Below the pieces are notes generated by a model that saw nothing but the letters and a program-made list of their open reading frames with translations, was not told the DNA's origin and ran no database searches. Shown one piece after another: positions 28,329 to 41,763 of a stretch of DNA of 64,000 nucleotides (the first letter of the stretch is position 1; the number at the start of each line of letters is the position of its first letter). Made by a program: the position numbers and the translations under genes. This DNA comes from Falsiroseomonas algicola (GTDB lineage: Bacteria > Pseudomonadota > Alphaproteobacteria > Acetobacterales > Acetobacteraceae), in the NCBI RefSeq assembly GCF_011040385.1, contig NZ_JAAIKB010000001.1, forward strand, positions 744,001-808,000, read 5' to 3'.

Positions 28329-29285
28329 ATGATCCGACGCCGTTCCCTCCTGGCCGGCAGCGCGTTGCTGGCCGGCACCGCAAGCGCCCAGGAAGCGCGC
28401 GGCCCCGTCCGCGTGGTGGTGCCCTCTCCGCCCGGCGGCCCGCCGGACCTGATCCTTCGCGCCATCCTGCCCAAGATGTCGGCGACGCTGGGCCAGACGC
28501 TGGTGACGGAGAACCGCGCCGGCGGCGGCGGGCTGGTCGGCACCGCCTATGTCGCGCGGACGCCGCCAGACGGGCAGACCTGGCTCTTCACCACCGCCAG
28601 CCACACCAACATCCCGCCCTTCAATGACAACGTGACCTACGACCCGGTGCGGGACTTCACCCATGTGACGCTGGCCGCGCAGAATTTCGGCCAGGCGCTG
28701 GTGGTGCATCCCTCCGTCCCCGCGACCAACCTGGCGGAGCTGGTGGCGCTGGCGAAGGCCAGGCCCGGCGCGCTGACCTATGCCAATGCCGGCAACGGCA
28801 CCGCCAGCCACATCCCGGCCGAGCTGATGAAGACCATGACGGGCACGGACATCCTCTCCGTCCCCTATCGCGGGGTTGCCGAGGCCACGACGGACCTGCT
28901 CGCCGGCCGCATCGACATGTTCTTCGTCGGCACGCAGATCGCCTTGCAGCACGTCCAGGCCGGGCGGCTCCGCGCCATCGCACTGACCGGTGCGCGGCGC
29001 TGGAAGGGCATGCCGGATGTGCCGACGCTGCAGGAACAGGGCCTCACGGGCTTCGATGTCGTCAACTGGTTCGGCCTCTGGCTGCCCGCCGGCGCCGCGC
29101 CCGCGCTCGTCAACCGCATTCACGGCGCCGTCGCGAGCGCGGTGCGGGACCCCGAGGTGATGCAGCAATTCGACAATCTCGGCCTGGAAGGTGTCGCCAT
29201 GCCGCCCGACCAGTTCGCGCCCTTCGTGGCGGAGCAGGCCCGCATCGCGCAGGAGATCGGCCGCCGCGTCGCCCGCCCGACCTGA
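28329..29285 (+). CDS. TTT (Bug) family solute-binding protein
   Basis: A 318-residue binding protein, second in its operon. The signal peptide ends AGTASAQ. Family text: VRVVVPSPPGGPPDLILR (an unusual PP-D in place of S-T-D), VTENRAGGGGLVGTAYVAR and TYANAGNGTASHIPAEL. The change of the substrate-loop Ser/Thr to Pro suggests a different ligand from its neighbour. A perfect 8-base-pair stem-loop follows its stop codon by 13 bases. Confidence 0.88.
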   Translation: MIRRRSLLAGSALLAGTASAQEARGPVRVVVPSPPGGPPDLILRAILPKMSATLGQTLVTENRAGGGGLVGTAYVARTPPDGQTWLFTTASHTNIPPFNDNVTYDPVRDFTHVTLAAQNFGQALVVHPSVPATNLAELVALAKARPGALTYANAGNGTASHIPAELMKTMTGTDILSVPYRGVAEATTDLLAGRIDMFFVGTQIALQHVQAGRLRAIALTGARRWKGMPDVPTLQEQGLTGFDVVNWFGLWLPAGAAPALVNRIHGAVASAVRDPEVMQQFDNLGLEGVAMPPDQFAPFVAEQARIAQEIGRRVARPT

Positions 29286-30396: not shown

Positions 30397-31329
30397 ATGT
30401 CCCGCCTGCTGACGCTCGCCGCTGCCCTGGGCGGCTTCGCCCTTGCCACCCACCAGGCCGCCCGCAACGCCGAGCGCGCCCGTGCCGCCCCCGGCCGCTT
30501 CATCGCCGTCGATGGTGTCCGCCTGCACATCCTGGACCGCGGCCCGCCGGCGCCCGATGGCCCGCCCGTGGTCCTGCTGCACGGCAATGGCAGCATGGTG
30601 GAGGATTTCGACAGCAGCGGGCTGATCGACCTCCTCGCCCGCCACCGCCGCGTGGTCGCGATCGACCGCCCCGGCTTCGGCCGCAGCGACCGGCCGCGCG
30701 ACCGCGACTGGACGCCGGAAGCGCAGGCCGCCCTGATTGCCGCGGCGCTGGAACGGCTCGGCCTCGTCCGCCCCATCGTGCTGGGCCACAGCTTCGGCGC
30801 GGTGGTCGCGCTGGCGCTGGCGCTGGACCATGCGAGCCGCATCGGCGGGCTGGTGCTGGAGAGCGGCTATTTCTTCCCGACCCTGCGCGCGGACGCCGTG
30901 CTCTTCTCGCCGCCTGCCATCCCGGGCATCGGCGACGTCATCCGCTACACCTATGGCCCGCCGCTCGGCCGCGCGGTCGCAAAGCCGATGATCCGGCGGA
31001 TGTTCGCGCCGCTGCCGGTGCCTCGGCGATTCAAGCGGGAATTCCCGCTGCCCCTCACCGTCCGCCCCTGGCAGATCCGGGCGGTGGCGGAGGACAGCGC
31101 GGCGATGGTCCCGGCCGCGCGCCGCCTGTCGCAGCGCCTCGGCCAGTTGCACCTGCCCGTCACGATCCTGGCGGGGGAGGAGGACCGGATCGTCAGCCCG
31201 AAGCGCCAGGCACAGCGCCTGCACGCGATGCTGCCGGACAGTCGCCTGGTCCTGCTGCCCGGCGCCGGCCACATGCTCCACCACGCCTCCCCGGCCGTGG
31301 TGGAGGAGGCGATCCTCAGCCTGGCGTGA
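30397..31329 (+). CDS. Alpha/beta hydrolase
   Basis: A 310-residue hydrolase. An N-terminal hydrophobic segment (residues 3-20) may be a membrane anchor. The catalytic triad is readable: Ser132 in GHSFG, Asp in GEEDRIVSP and His in GAGHMLHH; the oxyanion block is LLHGNGSMVEDF. Such enzymes cleave esters, C-C bonds of diketones or haloalkanes; the substrate is not predictable. It follows the Pht5-like gene by 58 bases on the same strand and may belong to the same operon. Its last 14 bases overlap the end of the convergent TTT gene. Confidence 0.88.
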   Translation: MSRLLTLAAALGGFALATHQAARNAERARAAPGRFIAVDGVRLHILDRGPPAPDGPPVVLLHGNGSMVEDFDSSGLIDLLARHRRVVAIDRPGFGRSDRPRDRDWTPEAQAALIAAALERLGLVRPIVLGHSFGAVVALALALDHASRIGGLVLESGYFFPTLRADAVLFSPPAIPGIGDVIRYTYGPPLGRAVAKPMIRRMFAPLPVPRRFKREFPLPLTVRPWQIRAVAEDSAAMVPAARRLSQRLGQLHLPVTILAGEEDRIVSPKRQAQRLHAMLPDSRLVLLPGAGHMLHHASPAVVEEAILSLA

Positions 31330-32296
31330 GCCCGGCGGCGCGCACGATCGGCGCGAAGGACGCCAGTTCGGCCTGCACGAAGCGGGTGAAAGCCTCCGGC
31401 GTGCTCTCCGGCGGCGGGGCTCCCAGCAGCTCCTCGAAGCGCGCGATGGTGGCGGGATCGGCCAGCACGGCGCGCACCGCCTCCGCCAGCCGCGCCACGA
31501 TGGCGGGCGGCAGGCCGGCGGGACCGGAGAGGCCGAACCAGGCGGCGCTGACGACATCGACGCCGCTCTCCCGCAGCGTCGGCAGGTCCGGGAAGCGGGC
31601 GGAACGCGCGGCGCTGCTGACGGCGAGGCCCCGCAGCGCACCGGAACGGATATGCGGCCCGGCACTCGGCAGGCTGTCCAGCATGGCCGGCACCACGCCC
31701 GCGATGGTGTCCGTCAGCGCCGGCCCCGCGCCGCGATAGGGCACGGCATTCACCTTCACGCCCAGCGCCATGCCGAGCCGGATGCCGGCCAGGTGGCTGG
31801 AGGTGCCGATGCCCGCGACGGCGAAGTCGATCTCCCCCGCCTCCCGCGCCATGGCGGCGAATTGCGCGAAATCCCGCGCACGATGCCCGGGGTTGGCCAC
31901 CAGGACGGAGGGGCTGGTCGCCACCAGCGCCACATGGGTGAAGTCGCGCATCGCGTCATAGGGGATGGCCGGGTAGAGCGCCGGCGAGACACCGTGGGAG
32001 GTGCTGTTGGACATCGCCAGCACATGCCCATCCGGCGCCGCCTGCGCCACGGCAGCCGCGCCGATGGTCGCCCCCGCCCCCGCCCGGTTCTCCACCACCA
32101 CGGGCTGGCCGAGCTGCGCGCCGAGCCGTTCCGCCACCAGCCGCGCCATCACATCGGTGGTGCCGCCGGGGGCGAAGGGGACGATGAGGCGGATCGGGCG
32201 CGTCGGCCAGGATTGCGCCCGGGCGGGCATGGCGGACAGCAGGGGGGCGAGCAGCAGCGGCGCGGCCAGCGCCGCGCGGCGGGTCAGGGCAGGCAT
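31316..32296 (-). CDS. TTT (Bug) family solute-binding protein
   Basis: A 326-residue binding protein with a signal peptide ending AMPARAQ. Family text: TRPIRLIVPFAPGGTTDVMAR (core PFAPGGTTD), VVENRAGAGATIGAAAVAQ and VNAVPYRGAGPALTDTIAG. A ribosome site (GGAGGAAAACGCC) precedes the ATG. It lies downstream of the carrier-protein operon, separated by 90 bases holding a hairpin, so it is probably a separate unit. Ligand unknown. Confidence 0.88.
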   Translation of the reverse strand: MPALTRRAALAAPLLLAPLLSAMPARAQSWPTRPIRLIVPFAPGGTTDVMARLVAERLGAQLGQPVVVENRAGAGATIGAAAVAQAAPDGHVLAMSNSTSHGVSPALYPAIPYDAMRDFTHVALVATSPSVLVANPGHRARDFAQFAAMAREAGEIDFAVAGIGTSSHLAGIRLGMALGVKVNAVPYRGAGPALTDTIAGVVPAMLDSLPSAGPHIRSGALRGLAVSSAARSARFPDLPTLRESGVDVVSAAWFGLSGPAGLPPAIVARLAEAVRAVLADPATIARFEELLGAPPPESTPEAFTRFVQAELASFAPIVRAAGLTPG

Positions 32297-32361
32297 GGCG
32301 TTTTCCTCCGGCTTTTGGGCGGAGTGTCGCGCCGAGTGCCGCTCGCCTCAACCCGGCGGCG

Positions 32362-32393
32362 GGCTCAAGCCTGGATCACGCCAGGCTCAAGCC
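32362..32393 (-). terminator. Hairpin of two GGCTCAAGCC repeats at the end of the carrier-protein operon
   Basis: GGCTCAAGCC occurs at 32362-32371 and 32384-32393, with CCTGG and CCAGG between, giving an imperfect hairpin of about 9 pairs. The second copy contains the stop codon of the GNAT gene. It may terminate or stabilise the operon transcript; there is no T-tract. Confidence 0.45.
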
Positions 32394-33070
32394 GCGCGGG
32401 ACAGCGCCTGCCGCGCCTGCCCGGCCTCGTCGAAATTGGCGGGGTCCAGCCAGGCGGAGAGGGCTGCGCGGCGCGCCGGCCATTCCTCCGCCAGCAGCCC
32501 GTACCAGTCCGTGTCCCGCCGCCGCCCGCGCGCGATCATGTGGGCGCGGAGCCGCCCCTCATGCCGGAAGCCCAGGCGTTCCGCCGCGCGGCCGGAGGCG
32601 GGGTGCAGCGCGTTGCACTTCCAGCCCACGCGCAGGTAGCGCAGGTCACCCAGCAGCAGGTCCAGCAGCAGGAAGCAGGCCTCCGTCGCGGATCGCGTGC
32701 GCGCCAGGCCCGGCGGGAACCAGAGATTGCCGAGTTCTGCCGAGGCGTGGTTGGGCCGGATGTCGAGCACGCCGATCCAGCCCGCCGCCGGCCCCGGCTG
32801 GCCATCGGCCAACAGCGGACGCACGGCCCACAACAGCTCTTCCTTGCTCGCGGCCGCCAGGCGTAGATAGCCGCGGAAGGCGGCCTCGCTGCCGAAGGGG
32901 CCGAAGGGCAGGTAGGTGAAGCTCTCCGGCGCCGCCGCCGCCTGCGGCCAGAGGGCGGCCGCATGGTCGCCCGACAGCGGCTCCAGCAACGTCCAGTGTC
33001 CGCGGATCGGGCCCGCCACGGGACGCTCCCGCGGCGCTGCGTCCACGGCCTCTCCGGGCCAGTCGGTCAT
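32387..33070 (-). CDS. GNAT-family N-acetyltransferase (RimJ/RimL-like)
   Basis: A 227-residue acetyltransferase starting at the ATG at 33070, overlapping the acyltransferase stop (ATGA). The RimJ/RimL pattern is clear: WTLLEPLSGDHAAALWP at the start, a GWIGVLDIRPNHASAELGNLWFPP strand pair (core ELGNLWFPP), the acetyl-CoA loop GLARTRSATEA and the C-terminal RAAERLGFRHEGRLRAHMIARG (core RLGFRHEGRLRAH). It uses acetyl-CoA to modify a small molecule or protein amino group. As last gene of the amino acid:carrier-protein operon it may acetylate the released amino-acyl product. This is inference; these enzymes are also common alone. Confidence 0.9.
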   Translation of the reverse strand: MTDWPGEAVDAAPRERPVAGPIRGHWTLLEPLSGDHAAALWPQAAAAPESFTYLPFGPFGSEAAFRGYLRLAAASKEELLWAVRPLLADGQPGPAAGWIGVLDIRPNHASAELGNLWFPPGLARTRSATEACFLLLDLLLGDLRYLRVGWKCNALHPASGRAAERLGFRHEGRLRAHMIARGRRRDTDWYGLLAEEWPARRAALSAWLDPANFDEAGQARQALSRAA

Positions 33071-34218
33071 GCCAGGCGCCGCCCGCCGGCGAGCACGCCA
33101 TAGAGCGCCGGGGAGACCCGGAAGATCAGCACGCCTGCCGCGGCGACGATGGCGATGGTCAGCGCGACGGAGGCGCCGTAATGCGCGAGCAGCCAAGCCT
33201 CCCCGGTCGCGGGCATCACGCGCGACAGCACCTCCTTCACCAAAGCGATGGCGGGGTAATGCGCGGCATGCAGGAAGAAGGCGAAGCCGCCCCAGCGCGC
33301 CAGCTGGCCGCCCCAGCCGGTGGAAGCGAGTTGCAGGCAGGCGCCCCAGCAGGCCGCGACGCCGAGCGGACGGATCAGGCGCGTCACGACATCGAGCCAG
33401 GCGATGGTGGCGGGGTCCGCCATGTCCACCACCAGCGGCGCCAGGGTGCGCATCGCCGTCAGGGCGGCATAGGCGACCAGCAGCGACAGGGTGACACCCG
33501 CACTGATCCGGAGGTTCCACTCCCGCCGCCGCGCCAGGGCGCCGAGGTAGAAGAAGAACAGCACGTCGGTCCGGATGAAGATGCCGAGCGTGAAGCCCGC
33601 CGCCCAGACCGCGGCCAGCACCACCGCACCCGCGATCGGCGCATGGCGCAGCGCCAGCCAGATCAGCGGCGCGCAGAGCACCGTGACGAAGAGGTCGCGC
33701 ACGAACCAGAACTGGAAGGCGATCGGCACCTCCGTGATGCCGAACACCGCATTGGCGTAGTCCCAGCCATCCGCCGTCGCGACCTGCAGGTTGAACTGCT
33801 GCGCGAAGCCGATGGTGGGCGCCACGCGCTGCGCCATGATGGCGATCGCGAGCGTCGCCAGGTTCCACAGGACCAGCGGCAGCAGCAGCGACCGCATGCG
33901 GCCCTGCACCTTGCGCCCGATCCCCTGCCCAGCGCGGTCGCCACCGCCGAAGAACAGCCAGCCGGACACGGCGCTCAGCAGCGGCACGGCGCTGAAGAAG
34001 AAGAAGGTCAGGAAGCCGTTGATGAAGGTCGCGACGCGCGGACCGTCCGGATCGATGCCCTGGAAGGGCTGCCGATGGTCGCCCGGCAGGTTGAAGTAGT
34101 GCAGGAAGACCAGCCCGATCACCAGCGCGACGCGGGCGAATTCGATCGTCTGCGTCAGCGCGGCGGGGCTCTCCACCGGGCGCGCGAGGTCATGCGGTGC
34201 GGTCAGCACGGCGCTCAT
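33067..34218 (-). CDS. Membrane acyltransferase (acyltransferase-3 / OpgC-like)
   Basis: A 383-residue integral membrane protein with about ten helices. The N-terminal helix begins IEFARVALVIGLVFLHYF, holding the family's essential His (LHYF); AFQFWFVRDLFVTVL is the typical FWFVRDLF motif of OpgC-like acyltransferases. Family knowledge: such proteins move acyl groups (acetyl, succinyl and others) across the inner membrane onto glycans or lipids. It overlaps the GNAT gene and sits 21 bases after the tandem hydrolase. It is the likely membrane step delivering a group to an extracytoplasmic acceptor. Confidence 0.88.
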   Translation of the reverse strand: MSAVLTAPHDLARPVESPAALTQTIEFARVALVIGLVFLHYFNLPGDHRQPFQGIDPDGPRVATFINGFLTFFFFSAVPLLSAVSGWLFFGGGDRAGQGIGRKVQGRMRSLLLPLVLWNLATLAIAIMAQRVAPTIGFAQQFNLQVATADGWDYANAVFGITEVPIAFQFWFVRDLFVTVLCAPLIWLALRHAPIAGAVVLAAVWAAGFTLGIFIRTDVLFFFYLGALARRREWNLRISAGVTLSLLVAYAALTAMRTLAPLVVDMADPATIAWLDVVTRLIRPLGVAACWGACLQLASTGWGGQLARWGGFAFFLHAAHYPAIALVKEVLSRVMPATGEAWLLAHYGASVALTIAIVAAAGVLIFRVSPALYGVLAGGRRLA

Positions 34219-34239
34219 CGTCCTTGTTCCTTCGCGGTG

Positions 34240-35958
34240 TCAGCGCGCGGGCAGCGCGAGGTTGGGCAGGCCGCCCGGCAGGGCGCGGTCGCGATGACCG
34301 GTATTCGCGCCGACCGGCGCCTCCACACTGTCCAGCCGGAGCGCCGCATCCTCGATCAGCGCCGCGGCTTCGGCCTGCATGGCAAGCGGCGCCAGCGCGT
34401 GCTCCGTGCCCTCCAGCACCCGGCAGCGCACCAGCGGGAAGCCGCAGAGCCGCCGGCCGTGCCGCCCGAAATGGGCGCGCAGCTCCCGCAGCCCACGATC
34501 CCCGCGGCTGTAGCCCAGCAGCACATGCACCCGCCGCGCGGCCAGGCGCCGCATCCAGGCGGAGGGCGCGTCCAGCCCGGTCTCGATCCCGATCCTCGCC
34601 AGCAGGCGGTCGGCTTCCGCCTTCAGCCGGCGGACCAGCATGCGGGGGCGCCGGAGCCAGGGCCTCTCGCCCGGTGGCGGCCCGCCATCCAGCGCCGGGG
34701 CACCGCCCTGGCTACGATCGAAGGCCGGCAGGTTGAACAGCGCCAGCCCGTCGATCCGCGAATCGATCAAGGCGAGACGCAGCGCCGCATGCGCGCCGGA
34801 GCAGAGCCCGACCGCGAGGCAGCGGGAGGCTCCTTCCGCCGCAAGCAGGTCCCGCCCTGCCCGCGCGGCCGGGACCAGGAAATCGGCAAAGGGATCGGGC
34901 GCGACGGCGGGGTCGGCGCCTTCCGGCGCGTCGCTGTCTCCAAGCCCGGGCAGGTCCATCCGCAGCGAGGGGATGCCCGCCTCGGCCAGGCGCCGCGCCA
35001 GCCGCACGCCGAAGCGGCCGACGCCGACATGGCCATTCGCCCCGGTATTCAGCAGCAGCGCGGCGGTGCGTCGCGCCTGGCCAGGTGCCGGGCTGCACAA
35101 CACGCCGACCAGGCTGCCGCCCGGCCCGAAGCGCAGCACGGATTCGATCGCACCGCCGCCGACCGGCCGCGGCAACGACTCCGCCACCTCTGCCGCTCCC
35201 GTGGCGACGCTCGCATCCTCCGCAAGCCAGGCGCTGGCACGGTCGAAGGCACCGACCGGCACTCGCGCCTCATGCGCCGGCGCCAGGAAGCTCTCCAGCC
35301 CCTCCAGGGCCTCGAAGGCCACGGCCGGGGCCACGCGGCGCGCGGACGCGGCAGCGCGGTCCATGATCATGACGCGCGGCACGGCAGCGCGACAGAGCGC
35401 CGCGGAAAGGTCGGCGCCAGCCAGGTCCTCGAGCTCCTCGACCGGCCAGAGATGGCCCGCCACCTCGATGCCATCGACCCAGTCGTCGCGACTTGCGCCG
35501 ACCTGCGCGGCCAGCAGCATGTGGCGGCGATGGGTGCGGCCCTGCGCCACCGGCGCCAGCAGCAGCAGCGCGGCGACCTCGCCAGGCCGGCGTGACGCCG
35601 CCTGCGCGGCGATCAGCGCGCCGAGGCGAAGCCCGGCCAGGGCGACCTCGGTGACGCCGGCCTCGGCGCGCATCCAGTCCATCGCCTCCAGCACCGCAGC
35701 GCGCGCATCCTCCAGCCGGAAACGCTCGCCCGGGCTGTCGCCGCTGCCCGGATGGTCGAAGCGGAGCACCGGGAGGCCGAGCGCCGCGCATCGCATGGCC
35801 AGGTCGCGCAGCCCGCGATGGGCCAGCAGCGCCTCATGCCCCTCCGGCGCCACGATGACCACGCCACGCCCGAGGGCGGGCAAGGCCGGCGGGTGGAACC
35901 AGCCGTGGCAGCCCGCGACGGTGACCGGCACCGCGCGAGGAGGTGCCGGCGCGTTCAT
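34240..35958 (-). CDS. Fusion of two alpha/beta hydrolase domains with altered nucleophiles
   Basis: A 572-residue protein made of two hydrolase-fold domains (residues about 1-250 and 265-560). In the first, the nucleophile elbow reads G109-L-R111-L-G, so Ser is replaced by Arg. In the second it reads G384-L-C386-S-G, so a Cys occupies the nucleophile position. From memory, these elbows resemble the exosortase A-associated hydrolase families 2 (GLRLGALL) and 1 (GLCDGA), here joined in one chain. The first domain is probably not a classical hydrolase; the second could be a thiol-nucleophile thioesterase or acyltransferase. The start overlaps the ligase stop (ATGA), so the two are coupled. It could take the aminoacyl group from the carrier protein. 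Confidence 0.85.
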   Translation of the reverse strand: MNAPAPPRAVPVTVAGCHGWFHPPALPALGRGVVIVAPEGHEALLAHRGLRDLAMRCAALGLPVLRFDHPGSGDSPGERFRLEDARAAVLEAMDWMRAEAGVTEVALAGLRLGALIAAQAASRRPGEVAALLLLAPVAQGRTHRRHMLLAAQVGASRDDWVDGIEVAGHLWPVEELEDLAGADLSAALCRAAVPRVMIMDRAAASARRVAPAVAFEALEGLESFLAPAHEARVPVGAFDRASAWLAEDASVATGAAEVAESLPRPVGGGAIESVLRFGPGGSLVGVLCSPAPGQARRTAALLLNTGANGHVGVGRFGVRLARRLAEAGIPSLRMDLPGLGDSDAPEGADPAVAPDPFADFLVPAARAGRDLLAAEGASRCLAVGLCSGAHAALRLALIDSRIDGLALFNLPAFDRSQGGAPALDGGPPPGERPWLRRPRMLVRRLKAEADRLLARIGIETGLDAPSAWMRRLAARRVHVLLGYSRGDRGLRELRAHFGRHGRRLCGFPLVRCRVLEGTEHALAPLAMQAEAAALIEDAALRLDSVEAPVGANTGHRDRALPGGLPNLALPAR

Positions 35959-36896
35959 CGCGCCGGCCAGAGCGCGTCGCGCACCGCCTGCGGCCAGGCG
36001 GCGGGATCCATGCCGTGGTGGCGCAGCAGCGCCAGCACGATGCGTTCCAGCCCGAAGCCCGCGCAGCCCGTATGCGCCAACTCGCCATCCGCGGCGCGGA
36101 TGCCATAGGCCTCGGCGAAATGCGTGACGTGGTAGTTGAAGGACCCGCAGGCGTTCGGGCGATCGGGATCGCTGATCGGCACCAGGATCTCGAACTTCAG
36201 GCGCTGGCTGCGCTGGCCGTCGCGCATCAGCGGCGCGGCGCGGCCGAAGAAGGGATCGTTGGCGATGTCGGTCGCGGCCGGCAGGTGAAGGGCCGCGAAC
36301 ATCGCCATGGCGCGATCCATCCAGCGCGACTGGAAGGCGCGGATGCGATCGGGCGTGCCGAAGCAGACCTGTTCGCGCTGCCGGAACATCTGCATGCGGA
36401 CGGGATCGACGGAGGGCTCTCGCCGGAAGCAGTAGGAGGAGCTGTCCACCAGCCAGCCTTCCTCCGGCAGCCGCCCCCGGGCGGCCACGATGGGATAGAC
36501 GGGATAGCAGGAGGCCGGCGTCAGCATCACATCCGCCGGCTGCATGTGGCTGGCGAAGCCGCCCTGTTCCGGCGTGCAGGCCAGCGCGCGCCGGTGCGCG
36601 GAATCATCGCCGCAGAAGCAGGAAACTCCGGCCGTGAGCTGAGGGAAGTTGCGGAAATAGCCGCTGGCCTCGAAGCCCGCGCGCGTCATGGCGGGCGGGA
36701 AGCGCAGCACCTCCACGCGATCGCCATCGGCGAGGCGACCGACCATGGCATCGACGGCGGCGACCGCGGCCTCGAACGCCTCGCCCCGGCCATAGAGTCC
36801 ATCGACGCCCGTCGGCAGCAGGTGGCCATGGCGGACCAGTTCCTCCCGGAACAGGTCGGCCGGCGTCTCGGTGGTGGCCATTATGGCGATATTCAT
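35955..36896 (-). CDS. Amino acid--[acyl-carrier-protein] ligase (class II synthetase homologue)
   Basis: A 313-residue protein starting at the ATG at 36896 behind GAGAGGA. It has the catalytic core of seryl-tRNA-synthetase type without the tRNA-binding arm. Motif-like blocks are MLTPASCYPVYPIVA, SSYCFRREPSVDPVRMQMFRQREQVCFG (core CFRREPS and FRQREQVCFGT), and C-terminal motif 3 HTGCAGFGLERIVLALL. Conserved Cys and Glu fit the zinc site known in the family. Established: homologues in Bradyrhizobium and Agrobacterium activate Gly or Ala and load it onto the phosphopantetheine of a small carrier protein, not tRNA. The carrier gene is directly upstream. The amino acid used here is not known. Confidence 0.92.
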   Translation of the reverse strand: MNIAIMATTETPADLFREELVRHGHLLPTGVDGLYGRGEAFEAAVAAVDAMVGRLADGDRVEVLRFPPAMTRAGFEASGYFRNFPQLTAGVSCFCGDDSAHRRALACTPEQGGFASHMQPADVMLTPASCYPVYPIVAARGRLPEEGWLVDSSSYCFRREPSVDPVRMQMFRQREQVCFGTPDRIRAFQSRWMDRAMAMFAALHLPAATDIANDPFFGRAAPLMRDGQRSQRLKFEILVPISDPDRPNACGSFNYHVTHFAEAYGIRAADGELAHTGCAGFGLERIVLALLRHHGMDPAAWPQAVRDALWPAR

Positions 36897-36921
36897 CGGT
36901 TTCCTCTCGGCGACCCGTGCG

Positions 36922-37173
36922 TCAGGCGGCGAGGGAATGACGATGCAGTTCCTCCGCCGCATCGATCAGCGCGGCGATGGTGGAAAAGGTTTCACGTCGC
37001 AACAAGTGATCAGGGAAACTTGAACCGAAATGTTCCTCCAGCCCTACCATCACCTCGACCGCGCCGAAGGAGGAGAGGCCCGCATCGAAGAGGTTGGCCG
37101 TCAGCGACAGCTGCGCGGCCGGCACGGCGAGATCGCCATTGGTCGCAAGGATTCCACGCACCACGTCTTCCAT
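36922..37173 (-). CDS. Small carrier protein for the amino acid:CP ligase
   Basis: An 83-residue four-helix carrier protein. The start at 37173 (MEDVVRGILATNGD) has GAGGG just upstream; an ATG at 37185 and one at 37230 are less likely. Phosphopantetheine would attach to Ser35 in LFDAGLSSFGAVEVM, where the usual D-S-L reads S-S-F. The following LEEHFGSSFPDHLLRRETFSTI closely resembles carriers served by these ligases (core FPDHLLRRETFSTI). It is the first gene of a five-gene operon and lies 25 bases before the ligase. The promoter should be in 37174-37409, an AT-richer gap. Confidence 0.88.
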   Translation of the reverse strand: MEDVVRGILATNGDLAVPAAQLSLTANLFDAGLSSFGAVEVMVGLEEHFGSSFPDHLLRRETFSTIAALIDAAEELHRHSLAA

Positions 37174-37320
37174 CGCCGCCCTCATCTGCTGGAGAGGGCG
37201 GCATATTCGCGCGTGCTGGCGCGCACACAATTCAACTCGGCATCAAGTCGTGGCTGCAACAGCCAACCTTAATTCGCGGAAAGGTGGAACCGCCGAAGGG
37301 TTAACGAAACGCAAGACGTA

Positions 37321-37336
37321 GCAACGGTTTCGTTGC
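37321..37336. promoter_or_regulatory. Short hairpin upstream of the carrier-protein operon
   Basis: GCAACG-GTTT-CGTTGC is a perfect 6-base-pair stem, and a second inverted pair AACGAAAC (37303-37310) / GTTTCGTT (37327-37334) overlaps it. It lies between the stop of the CoxL-like gene and the carrier-protein start, so it could be an operator for the carrier operon or a weak terminator. The two overlapping palindromes favour a binding site. Confidence 0.4.
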
Positions 37337-37409
37337 AGCCTGTCGTCGTTACCCCAGGCGCGTGTCGCGTGGGATCACGACATCGCGCGTGTCGCGGTGC
37401 CGACAGCGC

Positions 37410-39740
37410 CTATTGCATCGCGCGCCATATCCGCTCCGGCGTCGCGGGCATGTCGAGATGGGCGACTCCGATCGCATCGCAGACGGCGGAGATCACCGCG
37501 GGAAGCGCTCCGACCGTCCCGGCCTCGCCCGCCCCCTTGGCGCCGAGGGGGTTCATCGGAGTGGGCTGCGGGTTCGACCGCACGGCGACGAAGGGCATGT
37601 CGACGGCGCGCGGCATGGCGTAGTCCATGAAGGAGGCGGCGAGGAGTTGTCCCGTCTCCGGGTCGAAGACCGCCTCCTCCATCAGCGCCTGGCCGAGCCC
37701 CTGCGCCACGCCGCCCTGGATCTGGCCCTTCAGCAGCAGCGGGTTCACAACCGTGCCGACATCATCCACCACGGTGTAGCGCGTGACCGCCGCGGCGCCC
37801 GTCTCCGGGTCCACCTCAACCTCGCAGAGGTGGCAGCCATTCGGGAAGGTCGCGTCCTGCGGCGCGACGATGGCGGTGGCGTGCAGGCCCTTCTCCTCCC
37901 CCTGCGGCAGCCCGCCCGGCACATGGGCGGCGCGGGCCACCTGCTCGATCGTCACGGCGCGGTCGGTGCCGGCGACGGTGAAGCGGCCCTCGGCGAAATC
38001 GATGTCGGCGCCGGCGGCTTCCAGCATCAGGCCGGCGATGTGGCGGCCACGCTCGACGATGCGCTCGGCGGCGCGAGTCATCGCCGTGCCGCCGGCGATG
38101 ATGGACCGGCTGCCGAAGGTGCCGCGGCCATGCGGCAGCGCATCGGTGTCGCCATAGGCCACGCGGACCTTCAGGGGATCGAGCCCCAGCATGGTCGCCG
38201 CCATCTGGCGGAAGGCCGTCTCATGTCCCTGGCCGTGGCTGTGGCCGCCCAGGAGCAGCGTGCAGTGGCCATCGGAGCCGAAGCGAATCTCGACACCTTC
38301 CTCGCCCGGCATCTTGGCGGGGCCGGCGCTGATCTCGATGGCATTGGCGATGCCGAGGCCGAGCTTGCGGCCGCGCGAAGCCGCCTCCGCGCGGCGGGCG
38401 GGGAAACCGGCCACATCCGCGGCCTCCAGCGCCATCGCCATGCCGCGCGGGAAGTCGCCGCTGTCATAGGTGAAGACGAGGCCCGTGCGGAACGGCATCT
38501 CCTGCGGCTGGATCAGGTTCTTCCAGCGCAGCGCAGCGCGATCCATGCCGAGATGCAGCGCCGCCATGTCGATCACACGCTCGATCGCATAGGTCGCCTC
38601 CGGCCGCCCGGCGCCGCGATAGGGCGCGGTCGGCTGCGTGTTGGTGAAGGCGCCCAGCACCTCCGCATGGATGGCGGGCGTGCGGTAGACGCCGGCCAGG
38701 CCGCCCAGGTTGTTGGTGGAGGAATGCGGCGTCAGCAGCGCGAGATAGGCGCCGAGATTGGCGACGGTGCGGATGCGGAGCGCGAGGAAATTGCCTTCGG
38801 CGTCCAGCGCCAGTTCGACCGTGCTGTCATTGTCCCGCGCATGGGCATCGGATTGCAGCGCCTCGCTGCGATCGGCCACCCAGCGCAGCGGCCGGTTGAG
38901 GCGCTTCGCGGCCCAGAGCAGCGCGGCCTGTTCCTGCGTGGGGTGGCTGCGGAGCCCGAAGGCGCCGCCCATGTCGTTGGCCACGACGCGCAGTGCGGAG
39001 GACCCGGCGCCCAGCACCGGTGCCAGCGTGTCGCGCAGATTGTGCGGGCCCTGCGTGCCGTTGCGCAGCGTCCAGCGCCCCTCCGCCTCGTCCCACTCCG
39101 CGATGGCGGCGCGGGGCTCCATGGGGTTGGCGGAGACGCGGCTGATGCGGAAATCGAGCGCCACGCGATGCGCCGCGCGCGCGAAGGCCGCGCCAACGGC
39201 GGCCGCATCGCCCTGGGCGAAACCGAAGCCGATATTGTCCGGGCAGAGATCGGGCCAGACCAGGGGCGCGCCGTCGGCCAGCGCCGCCGTGGCGCTGGTG
39301 ACGGCGGGCAGAACCTCCCACTCCACCTCCACCGCTTCCGCGGCGTCGCGCGCCTGCTGCTTCGTCTCCGCCACGATCAGCGCGACGGGATCGCCGACAT
39401 GCTTGGCGGCACCCATGGCCAGCGGGCGATAGGGCGGGCGGGGCATGGGGCTGCCATCCGGGCGCTGGCGAGGCACGGCGCAGGGCAGCGTGCCGATGCC
39501 ATCCGCCACCGCATCCTCCCCGGTCAGCACGGCGATCACGCCAGGCAGGGCGAGCGCGGCGGCGACATCGATGGAGAGGATGCGCGCATGGGCGTGGGGG
39601 GAGCGCAGGAAGACGGCGGCGGCGGCATCAGGCGCGCGCAAATCGTCGGTGTAGCGGCCCTGGCCGCGCAGCAGGCGCGCATCCTCGAACCGCCGGATGG
39701 GCTGGCCGATTCCATTCGGGTTGGTGGCGTTCTGCTGCAT
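37410..39740 (-). CDS. Molybdenum hydroxylase large subunit (xanthine dehydrogenase/CoxL form II family)
   Basis: A 776-residue catalytic subunit. The N-terminal IGQPIRRFEDARLLRGQGRYTDDL is the family opening; the active-site loop reads APYRGAGRPE (form II, not the CO-oxidising AYRCSFR); the catalytic Glu is in GAKGAGEAGTVGALPA near the C-terminus. It hydroxylates aldehydes or N-heterocycles with a Mo-cytosine-dinucleotide cofactor. The FAD and 2Fe-2S subunits that normally accompany it are absent on both sides, so it must pair with subunits encoded elsewhere. A divergent TetR gene 96 bases away is the probable regulator. Downstream it ends 236 bases before the carrier-protein operon. Confidence 0.92.
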   Translation of the reverse strand: MQQNATNPNGIGQPIRRFEDARLLRGQGRYTDDLRAPDAAAAVFLRSPHAHARILSIDVAAALALPGVIAVLTGEDAVADGIGTLPCAVPRQRPDGSPMPRPPYRPLAMGAAKHVGDPVALIVAETKQQARDAAEAVEVEWEVLPAVTSATAALADGAPLVWPDLCPDNIGFGFAQGDAAAVGAAFARAAHRVALDFRISRVSANPMEPRAAIAEWDEAEGRWTLRNGTQGPHNLRDTLAPVLGAGSSALRVVANDMGGAFGLRSHPTQEQAALLWAAKRLNRPLRWVADRSEALQSDAHARDNDSTVELALDAEGNFLALRIRTVANLGAYLALLTPHSSTNNLGGLAGVYRTPAIHAEVLGAFTNTQPTAPYRGAGRPEATYAIERVIDMAALHLGMDRAALRWKNLIQPQEMPFRTGLVFTYDSGDFPRGMAMALEAADVAGFPARRAEAASRGRKLGLGIANAIEISAGPAKMPGEEGVEIRFGSDGHCTLLLGGHSHGQGHETAFRQMAATMLGLDPLKVRVAYGDTDALPHGRGTFGSRSIIAGGTAMTRAAERIVERGRHIAGLMLEAAGADIDFAEGRFTVAGTDRAVTIEQVARAAHVPGGLPQGEEKGLHATAIVAPQDATFPNGCHLCEVEVDPETGAAAVTRYTVVDDVGTVVNPLLLKGQIQGGVAQGLGQALMEEAVFDPETGQLLAASFMDYAMPRAVDMPFVAVRSNPQPTPMNPLGAKGAGEAGTVGALPAVISAVCDAIGVAHLDMPATPERIWRAMQ

Positions 39741-39836: not shown

Positions 39837-40484
39837 ATGGAAACGCCAAGTGCCACCCCCGCCCCCCGCCGCACCCGCGCGCCGGAAGCGACCAGGCGCG
39901 CCATCCTGGATGCGGCGCGGGCGGAGTTCGCGGCCAAGGGCTACGCCGGCGGGCGCGTGGACGACATCGCGGCGCGCACCGCGACCTCCAAGCGCATGAT
40001 CTACTACTACTTCGGGGGGAAGGAGCAGCTCTACGCCGCGGTGCTGGAGGAGATGTATGGCGGCATGCGCGATGCGGAGGCCGCGCTGGCGCTGGACAGC
40101 CTGCCGCCGCCGGAGGCGATGCGCCGCCTGGTGGAGGTGACCTTCGACCACCACGCCGCGCATCCCGAATTCGTCCGACTGGTCAGCGTGGAGAACATCC
40201 ACGAGGCGAGCAACGTGAAGCAATCGCCCGACATCCGCGCGCGCAACGCGACCGTGATCGGGCGGATGTCGGCGCTGCTGAAGCGGGGCGAGGCGAGCGG
40301 CGATTTCCGGCGGGGCATCGACCCGATCGACCTGCACATGCTGGTCAGCAGCTTCTGCTTCTACCGCATCTCCAACCGCCACACGCTGGGCGCCATCTTC
40401 GGGCGGGACACGATGGACCCCGCCACCGCGGCGCGGCAGCGGGAGATGATCGTGACGGCGGTGCTGCGCTACGTCTCGCCCTGA
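39837..40484 (+). CDS. TetR-family transcriptional regulator
   Basis: A 215-residue regulator. The DNA-binding domain is residues about 15-65: RRAILDAARAEFAAKGYAGGRVDDIA, then the recognition helix TSKRMIYYYFGGKEQLY (cores AEFAAKGY and MIYYYFGGKEQL). The C-terminal domain (HPEFVRLVSVENIHEASNVK) resembles NicR-like ligand-binding domains. It is divergent from the CoxL-like gene and likely controls it in response to an aromatic or heterocyclic compound. Its stop directly abuts that of the convergent DUF3309 gene. Confidence 0.9.
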   Translation: METPSATPAPRRTRAPEATRRAILDAARAEFAAKGYAGGRVDDIAARTATSKRMIYYYFGGKEQLYAAVLEEMYGGMRDAEAALALDSLPPPEAMRRLVEVTFDHHAAHPEFVRLVSVENIHEASNVKQSPDIRARNATVIGRMSALLKRGEASGDFRRGIDPIDLHMLVSSFCFYRISNRHTLGAIFGRDTMDPATAARQREMIVTAVLRYVSP

Positions 40485-40869: not shown

Positions 40870-41763
40870 TCAGCGCCCCAGCGACGCCTTGAACCCCGCC
40901 AGCATCCGCTCCGCATCCGGCACCAGGCCGGTGAAATGCGTGAAGGCATGCGCGGCCTGGAACACCGCCATGCCCCCGCCATCGAGCGTGCGGCAGCCGA
41001 GCCGACGCGCTTCCGCGAGCAGCGCCGTCTCCAGCGGGAAATAGACGATCTCCGCCACCCAGAGCCGCGCATGCAGCAGCGCTGGCGGGAGCGGCGTGCC
41101 CGGCAGCTTCGCCATGCCGACGGGCGTGCAGTTCACCAGGCCGTCGGCGGCGGCGACCTCCGCCGCCAGATCGGCCGCCGGCACCGCGCGGCCCTCGCCG
41201 AAGCGGGCTGCGAGAGACGCCGCGAGTTCGGCCGCGCGCCCAGCATCCACGTCATGGACCGCGAGAAGCTGCACGCCCGCATCCAGCAGCGCCTGCGCCA
41301 CGGCCGAACCGGCGCCGCCCGCGCCCAGCTGCACCACGCGGTCCCGCGCCACGCCGGGCAGGCCCCGCCGGAAGCTCTCGCCGAAGCCGCTGCAATCCGT
41401 GTTGTGGCCGATCCGCCGCCCGTCCCGCAGCACCACCGTGTTCACCGCGCCCAGCGCCGCCGCTTCCGGCGACAGCTCGTCCAGCAGCGGGATCACCTGC
41501 TGCTTGCTGGGGAAGGTGATGTTGAGGCCGCCGTAGCCCATCCGCTCCGCCGCCACCAGCAGCTCCGGCAGCACCGAAGCGCCGCCCGCGATGCGATCGA
41601 GGTCGATGATGCGGTAGACGCAGGGAAAGCCCTGCGCCGCCGCTTCCGCCATGTGCATCGCCGGCGTGCGGCTGGCCTGGATGCCCGCGCCGATCAGGCC
41701 GAGCACCAGCCCCTTCTCCTGCAACGTGGTCATGGCGGCGGCGGGCGGAAGGCTGTCGGGCAT
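40870..41763 (-). CDS. aroE: Quinate/shikimate dehydrogenase, NAD-type
   Basis: A 297-residue enzyme starting at 41763 (AGGA upstream). It interconverts shikimate or quinate and the 3-dehydro acids. Catalytic Lys is in NITFPSKQ, the Asp of the substrate pair in GHNTDCSGF, and the dinucleotide loop is LGAGGAGSAV. The next strand ends VHDVDAGRA: an acidic residue where NADP enzymes carry Arg, so NAD is the likely cofactor, as in catabolic quinate/shikimate dehydrogenases such as QsuD. The gene is divergent from two TTT proteins and a 3-dehydroshikimate dehydratase, supporting a catabolic role rather than biosynthesis. Confidence 0.88.
   Translation of the reverse strand: MPDSLPPAAAMTTLQEKGLVLGLIGAGIQASRTPAMHMAEAAAQGFPCVYRIIDLDRIAGGASVLPELLVAAERMGYGGLNITFPSKQQVIPLLDELSPEAAALGAVNTVVLRDGRRIGHNTDCSGFGESFRRGLPGVARDRVVQLGAGGAGSAVAQALLDAGVQLLAVHDVDAGRAAELAASLAARFGEGRAVPAADLAAEVAAADGLVNCTPVGMAKLPGTPLPPALLHARLWVAEIVYFPLETALLAEARRLGCRTLDGGGMAVFQAAHAFTHFTGLVPDAERMLAGFKASLGR

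What the first reader, a model, noticed from the sequence alone, without database searches (positions are those of the whole stretch)
32387..37173. Amino acid:carrier-protein operon with hydrolase, membrane acyltransferase and GNAT
Seen: five tightly packed genes (gaps 25 or 21 bases, others overlapping) encoding a phosphopantetheine carrier, an amino acid:CP ligase, a double alpha/beta hydrolase, an OpgC-like membrane acyltransferase and a GNAT enzyme. Known: such ligases load Gly or Ala onto dedicated carriers, but the onward fate of the aminoacyl group is not known to me. Inference: this operon supplies the missing steps. The hydrolase could transfer or release the aminoacyl group, the membrane protein could pass it to an extracytoplasmic glycan, lipid or protein, and the GNAT could N-acetylate it. 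That would be a non-ribosomal aminoacylation pathway of the cell envelope.
Basis: partly seen in the sequence, partly recalled or inferred. Interest (0 to 1): 0.85.

Follow-up and report, generated by a model that had tools for sequence, protein, structure and literature searches.

The report
Compact amino-acid-on-carrier envelope operon
A five-gene bacterial operon that loads an amino acid onto a small carrier protein looks like a stripped-down relative of a module that elsewhere often sits among genes for surface polysaccharides, which suggests that its long-unknown job is to decorate the cell surface with amino acids.

Summary
In detail: five tightly packed minus-strand genes encode a carrier protein (CP), an amino acid:CP ligase, a double alpha/beta hydrolase, an AT3 membrane acyltransferase and a GNAT. 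I found the five-gene set only in Roseomonadaceae/Acetobacteraceae (three named genera and a MAG). Elsewhere, mostly in Alpha- and Betaproteobacteria, the ligase sits in CP-dehydrogenase-ligase-DUF1839-GH2-hydrolase, often among exopolysaccharide genes (52 of 80 loci), including the Burkholderia bep cluster. The window clade lacks dehydrogenase, DUF1839 and GH2 there and has AT3 and GNAT instead. The hydrolase is the constant partner: in two genome samples all 22 genomes that encode it have this ligase (19) or another amino-acid-activating enzyme near it (3: DltA-like, exosortase-associated, NRPS module). Its N-domain mostly has Arg at the nucleophile site; its C-domain has an invariant Cys (167 of 167) with Asp and His. 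Best reading: aminoacyl-CP to hydrolase-Cys to a surface glycan, with AT3 and GNAT as clade-specific finishing steps (inferred). Surface-sugar aminoacylation was predicted in print in 2010; the hydrolase role, this variant and an alkali blind spot in the Bep structure I did not see stated in the papers my searches brought up.

The parts
36922..37173 (-). carrier protein (CP), 83 aa; predicted phosphopantetheine Ser35 (37069-37071)
   Evidence: PF00550, NF005480; best solved relatives 4h2w_C aminoacyl carrier protein and Atu2571; the second Ser of GLSS is kept in all 14 sequences of the alignment
35955..36896 (-). amino acid:CP ligase (class II seryl-tRNA-synthetase-like), 313 aa; C130, E175 and C278 at the recalled Zn-ligand sites
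   Evidence: NF005479 431.6 bits; 4h2w_A E 1.6e-81 and Bll0957 3mey_A E 1.2e-79; the three residues are invariant in A1 (27 sequences), checked
34240..35958 (-). double alpha/beta hydrolase, 572 aa: N-domain with Arg111 at the nucleophile site, C-domain with Cys386, Asp487, His520
33067..34218 (-). AT3 membrane acyltransferase, 383 aa, with the R-X10-H motif (R29, H40)
   Evidence: PF01757; R29 and H40 invariant in A3 (15 sequences) and checked; motif as described in passages of PMC9558356 and PMC7448272
32387..33070 (-). GNAT acetyltransferase, 227 aa, RimJ/RimL-like; the operon copy is one of two in this genome
   Evidence: PF13302; 3tcv E 2.6e-38; a second paralog on contig C88, 48% identical
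37174..37409 (.). intergenic stretch upstream of the CP, presumed promoter region
   Evidence: Position only; the sigma-70 consensus scan of 32200-37500 found no site

Best explanation
The operon is a compact, carrier-protein-dependent aminoacylation module for a surface glycan. (1) The ligase adenylates a small amino acid (Gly or Ala by family precedent) and loads it on the CP phosphopantetheine arm. (2) The double hydrolase takes the aminoacyl group from the CP thioester onto Cys386 of its C-terminal domain and hands it to a hydroxyl of a cytoplasmic sugar precursor or carrier; the Arg-type N-domain is catalytically dead and may dock the CP or the acceptor. (3) In this clade the AT3 protein carries out the membrane step (acylation of an extracytoplasmic glycan) and (4) the GNAT caps the amino group. 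Step 1 rests on family membership; step 2 is inferred from co-occurrence and catalytic residues; steps 3 and 4 are inferred from operon membership only. None was shown by experiment here.
For: Ligase and CP match the characterised family members Bll0957 and Atu2571. Hydrolase-ligase co-occurrence: in 398 phylum genomes 28 have the ligase over cut-off and 17 the hydrolase at E<=1e-60, 16 shared; of 20 ligase genomes that I picked, 19 were held and all 19 have the hydrolase. The hydrolase lies near a CP even where the activating enzyme is another one: DltA-like adenylation enzyme in L174, exosortase-associated ligase plus decarboxylase in L188; in L189 a C-A-T NRPS module precedes two separate hydrolase genes. 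Taken together, the 22 hydrolase genomes (the window's own and G468, the centre, included) have this ligase (19) or another activating enzyme near the hydrolase (3). Cys nucleophile 167/167, Asp 160/167, His 163/167; Cys386 lies at a nucleophile elbow of the model. Envelope link: a WcaJ-type gene in 38 of 80 loci, each reaching at most 10 kb from the ligase, and any of seven polysaccharide-type genes in 52 of 80, against 1-8 PF02397 matches per whole genome in 30 genomes. The homologous module lies in the B. cenocepacia bep region (L168/L169); in the related becA-R cluster a becG (acyl-CoA dehydrogenase) transposon mutant had reduced biofilm (PMC5507470, passages). In the 150-genome family sample the AT3 subfamily (E<=1e-50) is found in 4 genomes, three of which are the three with the five-gene operon.
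Against: The window operon and its orthologs are not next to polysaccharide genes: the genome's four PF02397 matches are on other contigs and L018-L021 have none of the polysaccharide-type hits. becF, by gene order perhaps the CP gene, was in the library and not a hit in the biofilm screen (PMC5507470). The published Bep repeat shows no aminoacyl group, although it was extracted in 0.3 M NaOH and read in NaOD (PMC7084887, passages), which would strip esters. The AT3 beside the hydrolase in B. cenocepacia (L169) gave no blastp hit to the window AT3 at E 1, so the two AT3s look separately recruited. One AT3 relative (G024) lies beside a CopB gene, with none of the module's genes in 17 kb. The GNAT belongs to a common family. 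Twelve ligase genomes, all of a second ligase clade, lack the hydrolase at E<=1e-60. Of 34 plasmid records with a hydrolase match I opened 4: three are canonical and one has no activating enzyme within 8 kb. Searches scored only the best 3-4 candidates per genome, so weak copies can be missed.
Confidence: 0.45

Rival explanations
1. The GNAT, not the hydrolase, is the aminoacyl transferase: it takes the aminoacyl group from the CP and forms an amide, as GNAT-fold Fem/MprF/VlmA enzymes do from tRNA, and the hydrolase is an editing thioesterase that clears mis-loaded carriers.
For: In the five operon-bearing genomes searched, the best GNAT match is the operon copy, and it stays beside the CP even where its order has changed (L021/L164). 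GNAT-fold aminoacyl transferases are described in PMC2922099 (passage). A chain named carrier protein, GNAT family transferase is among the CP's PDB matches (8zt4).
Against: The GNAT was not found in the module outside this clade, and its nearest solved relatives are named as acetyltransferases. A Cys kept in 167 of 167 hydrolases is not needed for editing.
Confidence: 0.15
2. The hydrolase is a release thioesterase and the operon makes a small soluble product (for example an N-acylated amino acid) rather than a decorated glycan.
Against: The wider module repeatedly sits among exopolysaccharide genes and the operon contains a membrane acyltransferase.
Confidence: 0.2
3. Dlt-like direct route: the AT3 docks the charged CP itself and passes the aminoacyl group across the membrane, as DltB does with D-Ala-DltC; the hydrolase is auxiliary.
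For: AT3 proteins are held to move acyl groups from a cytoplasmic donor across the membrane (PMC7448272, passages; PMC12423673, start of abstract in the listing), and a CP arm has the same pantetheine end as CoA. In L174 the activating enzyme itself is DltA-like.
Against: This AT3 subfamily was not found in the other ligase loci, so it cannot be the general acceptor. I did not search for an AT3 that uses a carrier protein.
Confidence: 0.15
4. AT3 and GNAT are passengers with an unrelated role and only CP, ligase and hydrolase form a pathway.
For: Both belong to widespread families; an AT3 relative occurs without the module (G024).
Against: The association survives in three named genera and a MAG, with changed flanks and one changed gene order.
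Confidence: 0.15

Closest known systems
Amino acid:[carrier protein] ligases of Bradyrhizobium and Agrobacterium with their carriers (Bll0957; Atu2571)
   Same: Ligase (E 1.6e-81) and CP (E 5.8e-14) match by sequence; residues at the recalled Zn-ligand positions are kept.
   Different: The window clade lacks the neighbouring dehydrogenase and DUF1839, and adds AT3 and GNAT. The biological role was stated as unknown in a 2022 review (PMC9437257, passage).
Canonical module CP - acyl-CoA-dehydrogenase-like - ligase - DUF1839 - GH2 - double hydrolase (e.g. Azospirillum lipoferum 4B AZOLI_RS28510-28485)
   Same: Shares CP, ligase and double hydrolase.
   Different: Three middle genes are missing in the window; DUF1839 has no match in the whole genome held.
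Burkholderia bep/bec biofilm exopolysaccharide cluster
   Same: The B. cenocepacia region holds the canonical module, a double hydrolase and an AT3 next to it (L168/L169; PMC3584217, passages).
   Different: Its AT3 is not detectably similar to the window AT3; no glycan synthesis genes were found beside the window operon.
Exosortase A (XrtA) associated hydrolases 2 and 1 (TIGR03101, TIGR03100)
   Same: Same order and same Arg/Cys pattern; L188 carries a fused pair over both cut-offs.
   Different: The window halves score 70.8 and 85.3 bits, below the cut-offs of 202.75 and 168.45.
Dlt system (DltA/DltC/DltB/DltD)
   Same: Works alike in outline: amino acid activation, carrier, polytopic acyltransferase.
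   Different: Loading enzyme is class II synthetase-like and the membrane protein is AT3, not MBOAT.

Membership tests
amino acid:[carrier protein] ligase | NF005479 score over the curated cut-off | tested here: met
   431.6 bits against 357
amino acid:[carrier protein] ligase | catalytic core without the tRNA-binding domain of SerRS | tested here: met
   313 aa; matches only positions 310-504 of the 518-position SerRS model NF002120
amino acid:[carrier protein] ligase | Cys/Glu/Cys zinc ligands (Cys131, Glu176, Cys279 of Bll0957, recalled) | tested here: met
   C130, E175, C278 present and invariant in A1; the Bll0957 numbers are from memory
amino acid:[carrier protein] ligase | charges a carrier with Gly or Ala | not testable with these tools
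   needs enzymology
AT3 acyltransferases (PF01757) | Pfam score over gathering cut-off | tested here: met
   68 bits against 31
AT3 acyltransferases (PF01757) | R/K-X10-H motif in helix 1 | tested here: met
   R29 and H40; motif from PMC7448272 (passage)
XrtA-associated hydrolases TIGR03100/TIGR03101 | scores over curated cut-offs | tested here: not met
   85.3 < 168.45 and 70.8 < 202.75: relative, not a member
Dlt system | DltA-type AMP-binding loading enzyme | tested here: not met
   ligase hits only PF00587 in Pfam at E up to 1, no PF00501
Dlt system | DltC over cut-off | tested here: not met
   NF003464 23.7 bits against 68
Dlt system | MBOAT-type membrane transferase | tested here: not met
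   AT3 hits only PF01757 at E up to 1
canonical CP-ACAD-ligase-DUF1839-GH2-hydrolase module | DUF1839 present | tested here: not met
   no PF08893 match in the window's genome as held
canonical CP-ACAD-ligase-DUF1839-GH2-hydrolase module | CP, ligase and double hydrolase in one gene cluster | tested here: met

The most novel reading that the evidence does not exclude
The pair hydrolase 2 + hydrolase 1 is a general carrier-protein-dependent aminoacyl transferase for bacterial surface polysaccharides, fed by at least four kinds of loading enzyme (SerRS-like ligase, DltA-like enzyme, NRPS module, exosortase-associated ligase). The window operon is then the minimal free-standing form: a Gram-negative counterpart of the Dlt system in which an AT3 protein performs the membrane step. 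This would also assign a function to the exosortase-associated hydrolases.
Probability: 0.3. Interest if true: 0.85.

Novelty: new variant of a known kind. Interest (0 to 1): 0.66.

Why it matters
What amino acid:carrier protein ligases are for was called unknown in a 2022 review (PMC9437257, passage). The comparison gives that question a testable form. It names a constant partner, a Cys-type double hydrolase. It ties the pathway to biofilm polysaccharides, with a mutant phenotype of a neighbouring gene already in print. It points to a concrete reason why a substituent could have been missed: the Bep polysaccharide was extracted in 0.3 M NaOH and read in NaOD, conditions that remove esters, and the reported backbone has no amino sugar to carry an amide. 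The window operon offers a five-gene system small enough to reconstitute.

Tried and rejected
Window genes as part of a local polysaccharide locus: rejected on what was examined; the flanking genes scanned are a molybdopterin hydroxylase subunit, a shikimate-dehydrogenase-like protein, a TetR regulator, a lone alpha/beta hydrolase and two TctC receptors, and no PF02397 gene lies on that contig. Window AT3 as ortholog of the Bep AT3: no blastp hit at E 1. AT3 as exclusive operon marker: one relative beside CopB. GNAT as operon-specific family: relatives in 9 of 10 hand-picked genomes, operon-less ones among them. Cispentacin-type carrier (NF058660): 33 bits against a cut-off of 80. Solved relative of the AT3 by sequence: none at E 0.01. 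Promoter and terminator scans found nothing. No tRNA and no Rfam match at gathering score in the window.

Literature (open-access library; listings are capped, and I opened passages of nine papers only): two searches brought nothing on the fate of the aminoacyl group; 32 led to the 2022 review and the 2010 note; 27 and 28 led to the becA-R paper and the DUF1839 classification; 38 to the bep papers; two listed nothing on point by title and start of abstract; 18 concerned cispentacin, a different system; 84 the AT3 motif. The 2010 PNAS paper is not held and is recalled.

Selections before counts: the tree left out 19 listed loci (duplicates, truncated or distant, among them the MAG L021/L164) and half of the canonical rows (45 of 90 kept); its root is a midpoint and several rows are long branches. 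Of the 12 ligase genomes without hydrolase, longer stretches were taken for four (L170-L173); the rest were seen in 3.9-kb loci only. Polysaccharide-type genes were found by blastp (E 1e-10) with nine reference proteins cut by coordinates from fetched loci, seven of which count towards the 52 of 80; Burkholderiaceae and Methylobacterium make up most of it, and no shuffled control was run. One search printed maps of 31 of 80 loci; searches cover all 80. The Fisher test treats related genomes as independent and takes as the same 398 genomes, as their handles and sizes suggest. For G625 and G764 the ligase itself was not searched genome-wide. The fold list may be filled by one common fold.
Full report
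OBSERVATION. The window lies on contig C11 of genome G000, by its nearest relatives a Roseomonas-like Acetobacteraceae. Family scans give a carrier protein, an amino acid:CP ligase over its curated cut-off, a two-domain alpha/beta hydrolase, an Acyl_transf_3 protein and a GNAT. The ligase's best solved relatives are Bll0957-type structures (E 1.6e-81 and 1.2e-79); the CP's are the aminoacyl carrier protein of 4h2w and Atu2571. The three residues at the zinc-ligand positions that I recall for Bll0957 are conserved.

CONSERVATION. Gene content within 8 kb of the ligase, centre to centre: 43 loci CP-ACAD-DUF1839-GH2, 25 the same plus the hydrolase, 4 CP-hydrolase-AT3-GNAT, 4 CP-ACAD-DUF1839, 2 CP-ACAD-hydrolase, 1 DUF1839-GH2-hydrolase, 1 none of these; some loci are cut short by contig ends. 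The window-type set is in L018 (Roseomonas ponticola), L019 (Paracraurococcus ruber), L020 (Belnapia moabensis) and L021 (a MAG whose ligase frame is interrupted), plus L163 (unnamed family member G121); L164 (G041) is the same contig as L021 by length. In the ligase tree the window and L018, L019, L020, L163 form one clade (100/99). In a 150-genome family sample 11 genomes have a ligase match and 9 are over cut-off; three of those nine carry the window-type set (G000, G121, G041). So the variant is real, cross-genus and patchy.

WHAT CHANGED. The canonical order, also seen in annotated plasmids (Azospirillum lipoferum 4B; Azospirillum sp. TSH58; A. brasilense; 4 of 34 matching records opened), is CP - acyl-CoA dehydrogenase-like - ligase - DUF1839 - GH2 - hydrolase. 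DUF1839 is papain-like, and the authors of a 2023 classification suggested glycan processing at the cell wall (PMC10318531, passages). BtrH, an acyl carrier protein:aminoglycoside acyltransferase, is papain-like too (same source), so DUF1839 may be a carrier-dependent transferase (inference). Loci with CP-ACAD-ligase-hydrolase (L022, L028, L161) look like intermediates. The window genome has no DUF1839 match.

THE CONSTANT PARTNER. In 398 phylum genomes the ligase is over cut-off in 28 (44 at E<=0.001) and the hydrolase (E<=1e-60) in 17; 16 are shared (Fisher p 3.6e-20; genomes are related, so this p is optimistic). The 12 ligase genomes without the hydrolase fall in a second ligase clade, with the dehydrogenase beside the ligase and no DUF1839 or hydrolase in the DNA seen (longer stretches for 4 of the 12). 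Of 20 ligase-bearing loci asked, 19 genomes were held and 19 have the hydrolase. A 300-genome sample of the order of G468 added five hydrolase genomes. Three of these have the canonical module, with lower-scoring ligases (L185-L187, 413-421 bits). The remaining three of the 22 have another activating enzyme near the hydrolase: G468, which has no ligase match, a DltA-like amino acid adenylation enzyme (TIGR01733, 346 bits) and a CP, next to Wzc and a GDP-mannose dehydratase; G625 the exosortase-associated ligase (TIGR03098, 816 bits) and decarboxylase (TIGR03099, 632 bits) on the opposite strand, and a weak CP match (30 bits); G764 a C-A-T NRPS module followed by separate hydrolase 2 and hydrolase 1 genes. 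A counter-example is a Caballeronia plasmid copy without any activating enzyme annotated within 8 kb.

ENVELOPE LINK. 38 of 80 loci hold a WcaJ-type gene within about 10 kb and 52 of 80 at least one polysaccharide-type gene, while whole genomes have 1 to 8 PF02397 matches each (30 genomes). In B. cenocepacia the ligase module and the double hydrolase are about 16 kb apart on one contig with an AT3 beside the hydrolase; the published cluster lists Bcam1333 (Acyl_transf_3), Bcam1334 (TIGR03100 hydrolase) and Bcam1341 (predicted acyltransferase) (PMC3584217, passages). In the related becA-R cluster a mutant in becG, an acyl-CoA dehydrogenase gene, had reduced biofilm, 0.84 against 1.25 (PMC5507470, passages); that the genes after becG are the ligase and DUF1839 is my inference from L168. 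Against: becF was in the library and not a hit. The polysaccharide isolated as Bep has a Gal-Glc-Gal-Man repeat without amino sugar, was purified in 0.3 M NaOH and read in NaOD (PMC7084887, passages); the words amino acid, glycine, alanine and substituent do not occur in its text. So an amide-linked amino acid has no place on it, but an ester-linked one would have been removed by the method.

PRIOR ART. The 2010 note added in proof of PMC2922099 (passage) proposed from gene neighbourhoods that this synthetase paralog ligates an amino acid to an amino group of a cell-surface sugar, with the uncharacterised ORF (Atu2574) as ligase. My results agree on the surface glycan, and suggest for the window variant, which has no DUF1839, that the Cys hydrolase can act as the transferase.

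AT3 AND GNAT. The AT3 has the R-X10-H motif (PMC7448272, passage). In 150 family genomes its subfamily (E<=1e-50) is found in four: the three operon genomes and G024 beside a CopB gene. The GNAT belongs to a common family: in ten genomes chosen by hand, nine have a relative at E<=1e-15, and the five best matches are the operon copies; three of those genomes have a second copy, two (G121, G557) have the operon copy alone. Roles as membrane step and amino-group cap are inferences.

VERDICT. A new variant of a known kind of system, with a solid core (CP-ligase-Cys hydrolase) and unproven ends (AT3, GNAT, acceptor).

Noticed in passing
   Followed up: partly
L188 3035-9367 and L189 3858-8970: Loci where hydrolase 2 and 1 are fused (L188, exosortase-type) or separate (L189, behind an NRPS module); hydrolase 1 has a Cys at the same site in both. 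Suggests a function for TIGR03100/TIGR03101.
   Followed up: partly
L162, L170-L173: Second ligase clade: dehydrogenase next to ligase, no DUF1839, GH2 or double hydrolase in the stretch; in L162 WcaJ- and Wzc-like genes lie upstream.
   Followed up: no
window 37410-39740 (-), 40870-41763 (-), 39837-40484 (+): Molybdopterin hydroxylase large subunit, shikimate-dehydrogenase-like protein and a TetR regulator just upstream of the operon; of the four loci compared only R. ponticola L018 shares this stretch.
   Followed up: partly
window 28329-29285 (+) and 31316-32296 (-): Two TctC-type tripartite tricarboxylate receptor proteins, with a lone alpha/beta hydrolase gene (30397-31329 +) between them.
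   Followed up: no
L199 (Caballeronia sp. NK8 plasmid pNK83), 8001-9824: A double hydrolase standing alone, followed by amino acid transporter and 4-hydroxyproline epimerase genes.
   Followed up: no
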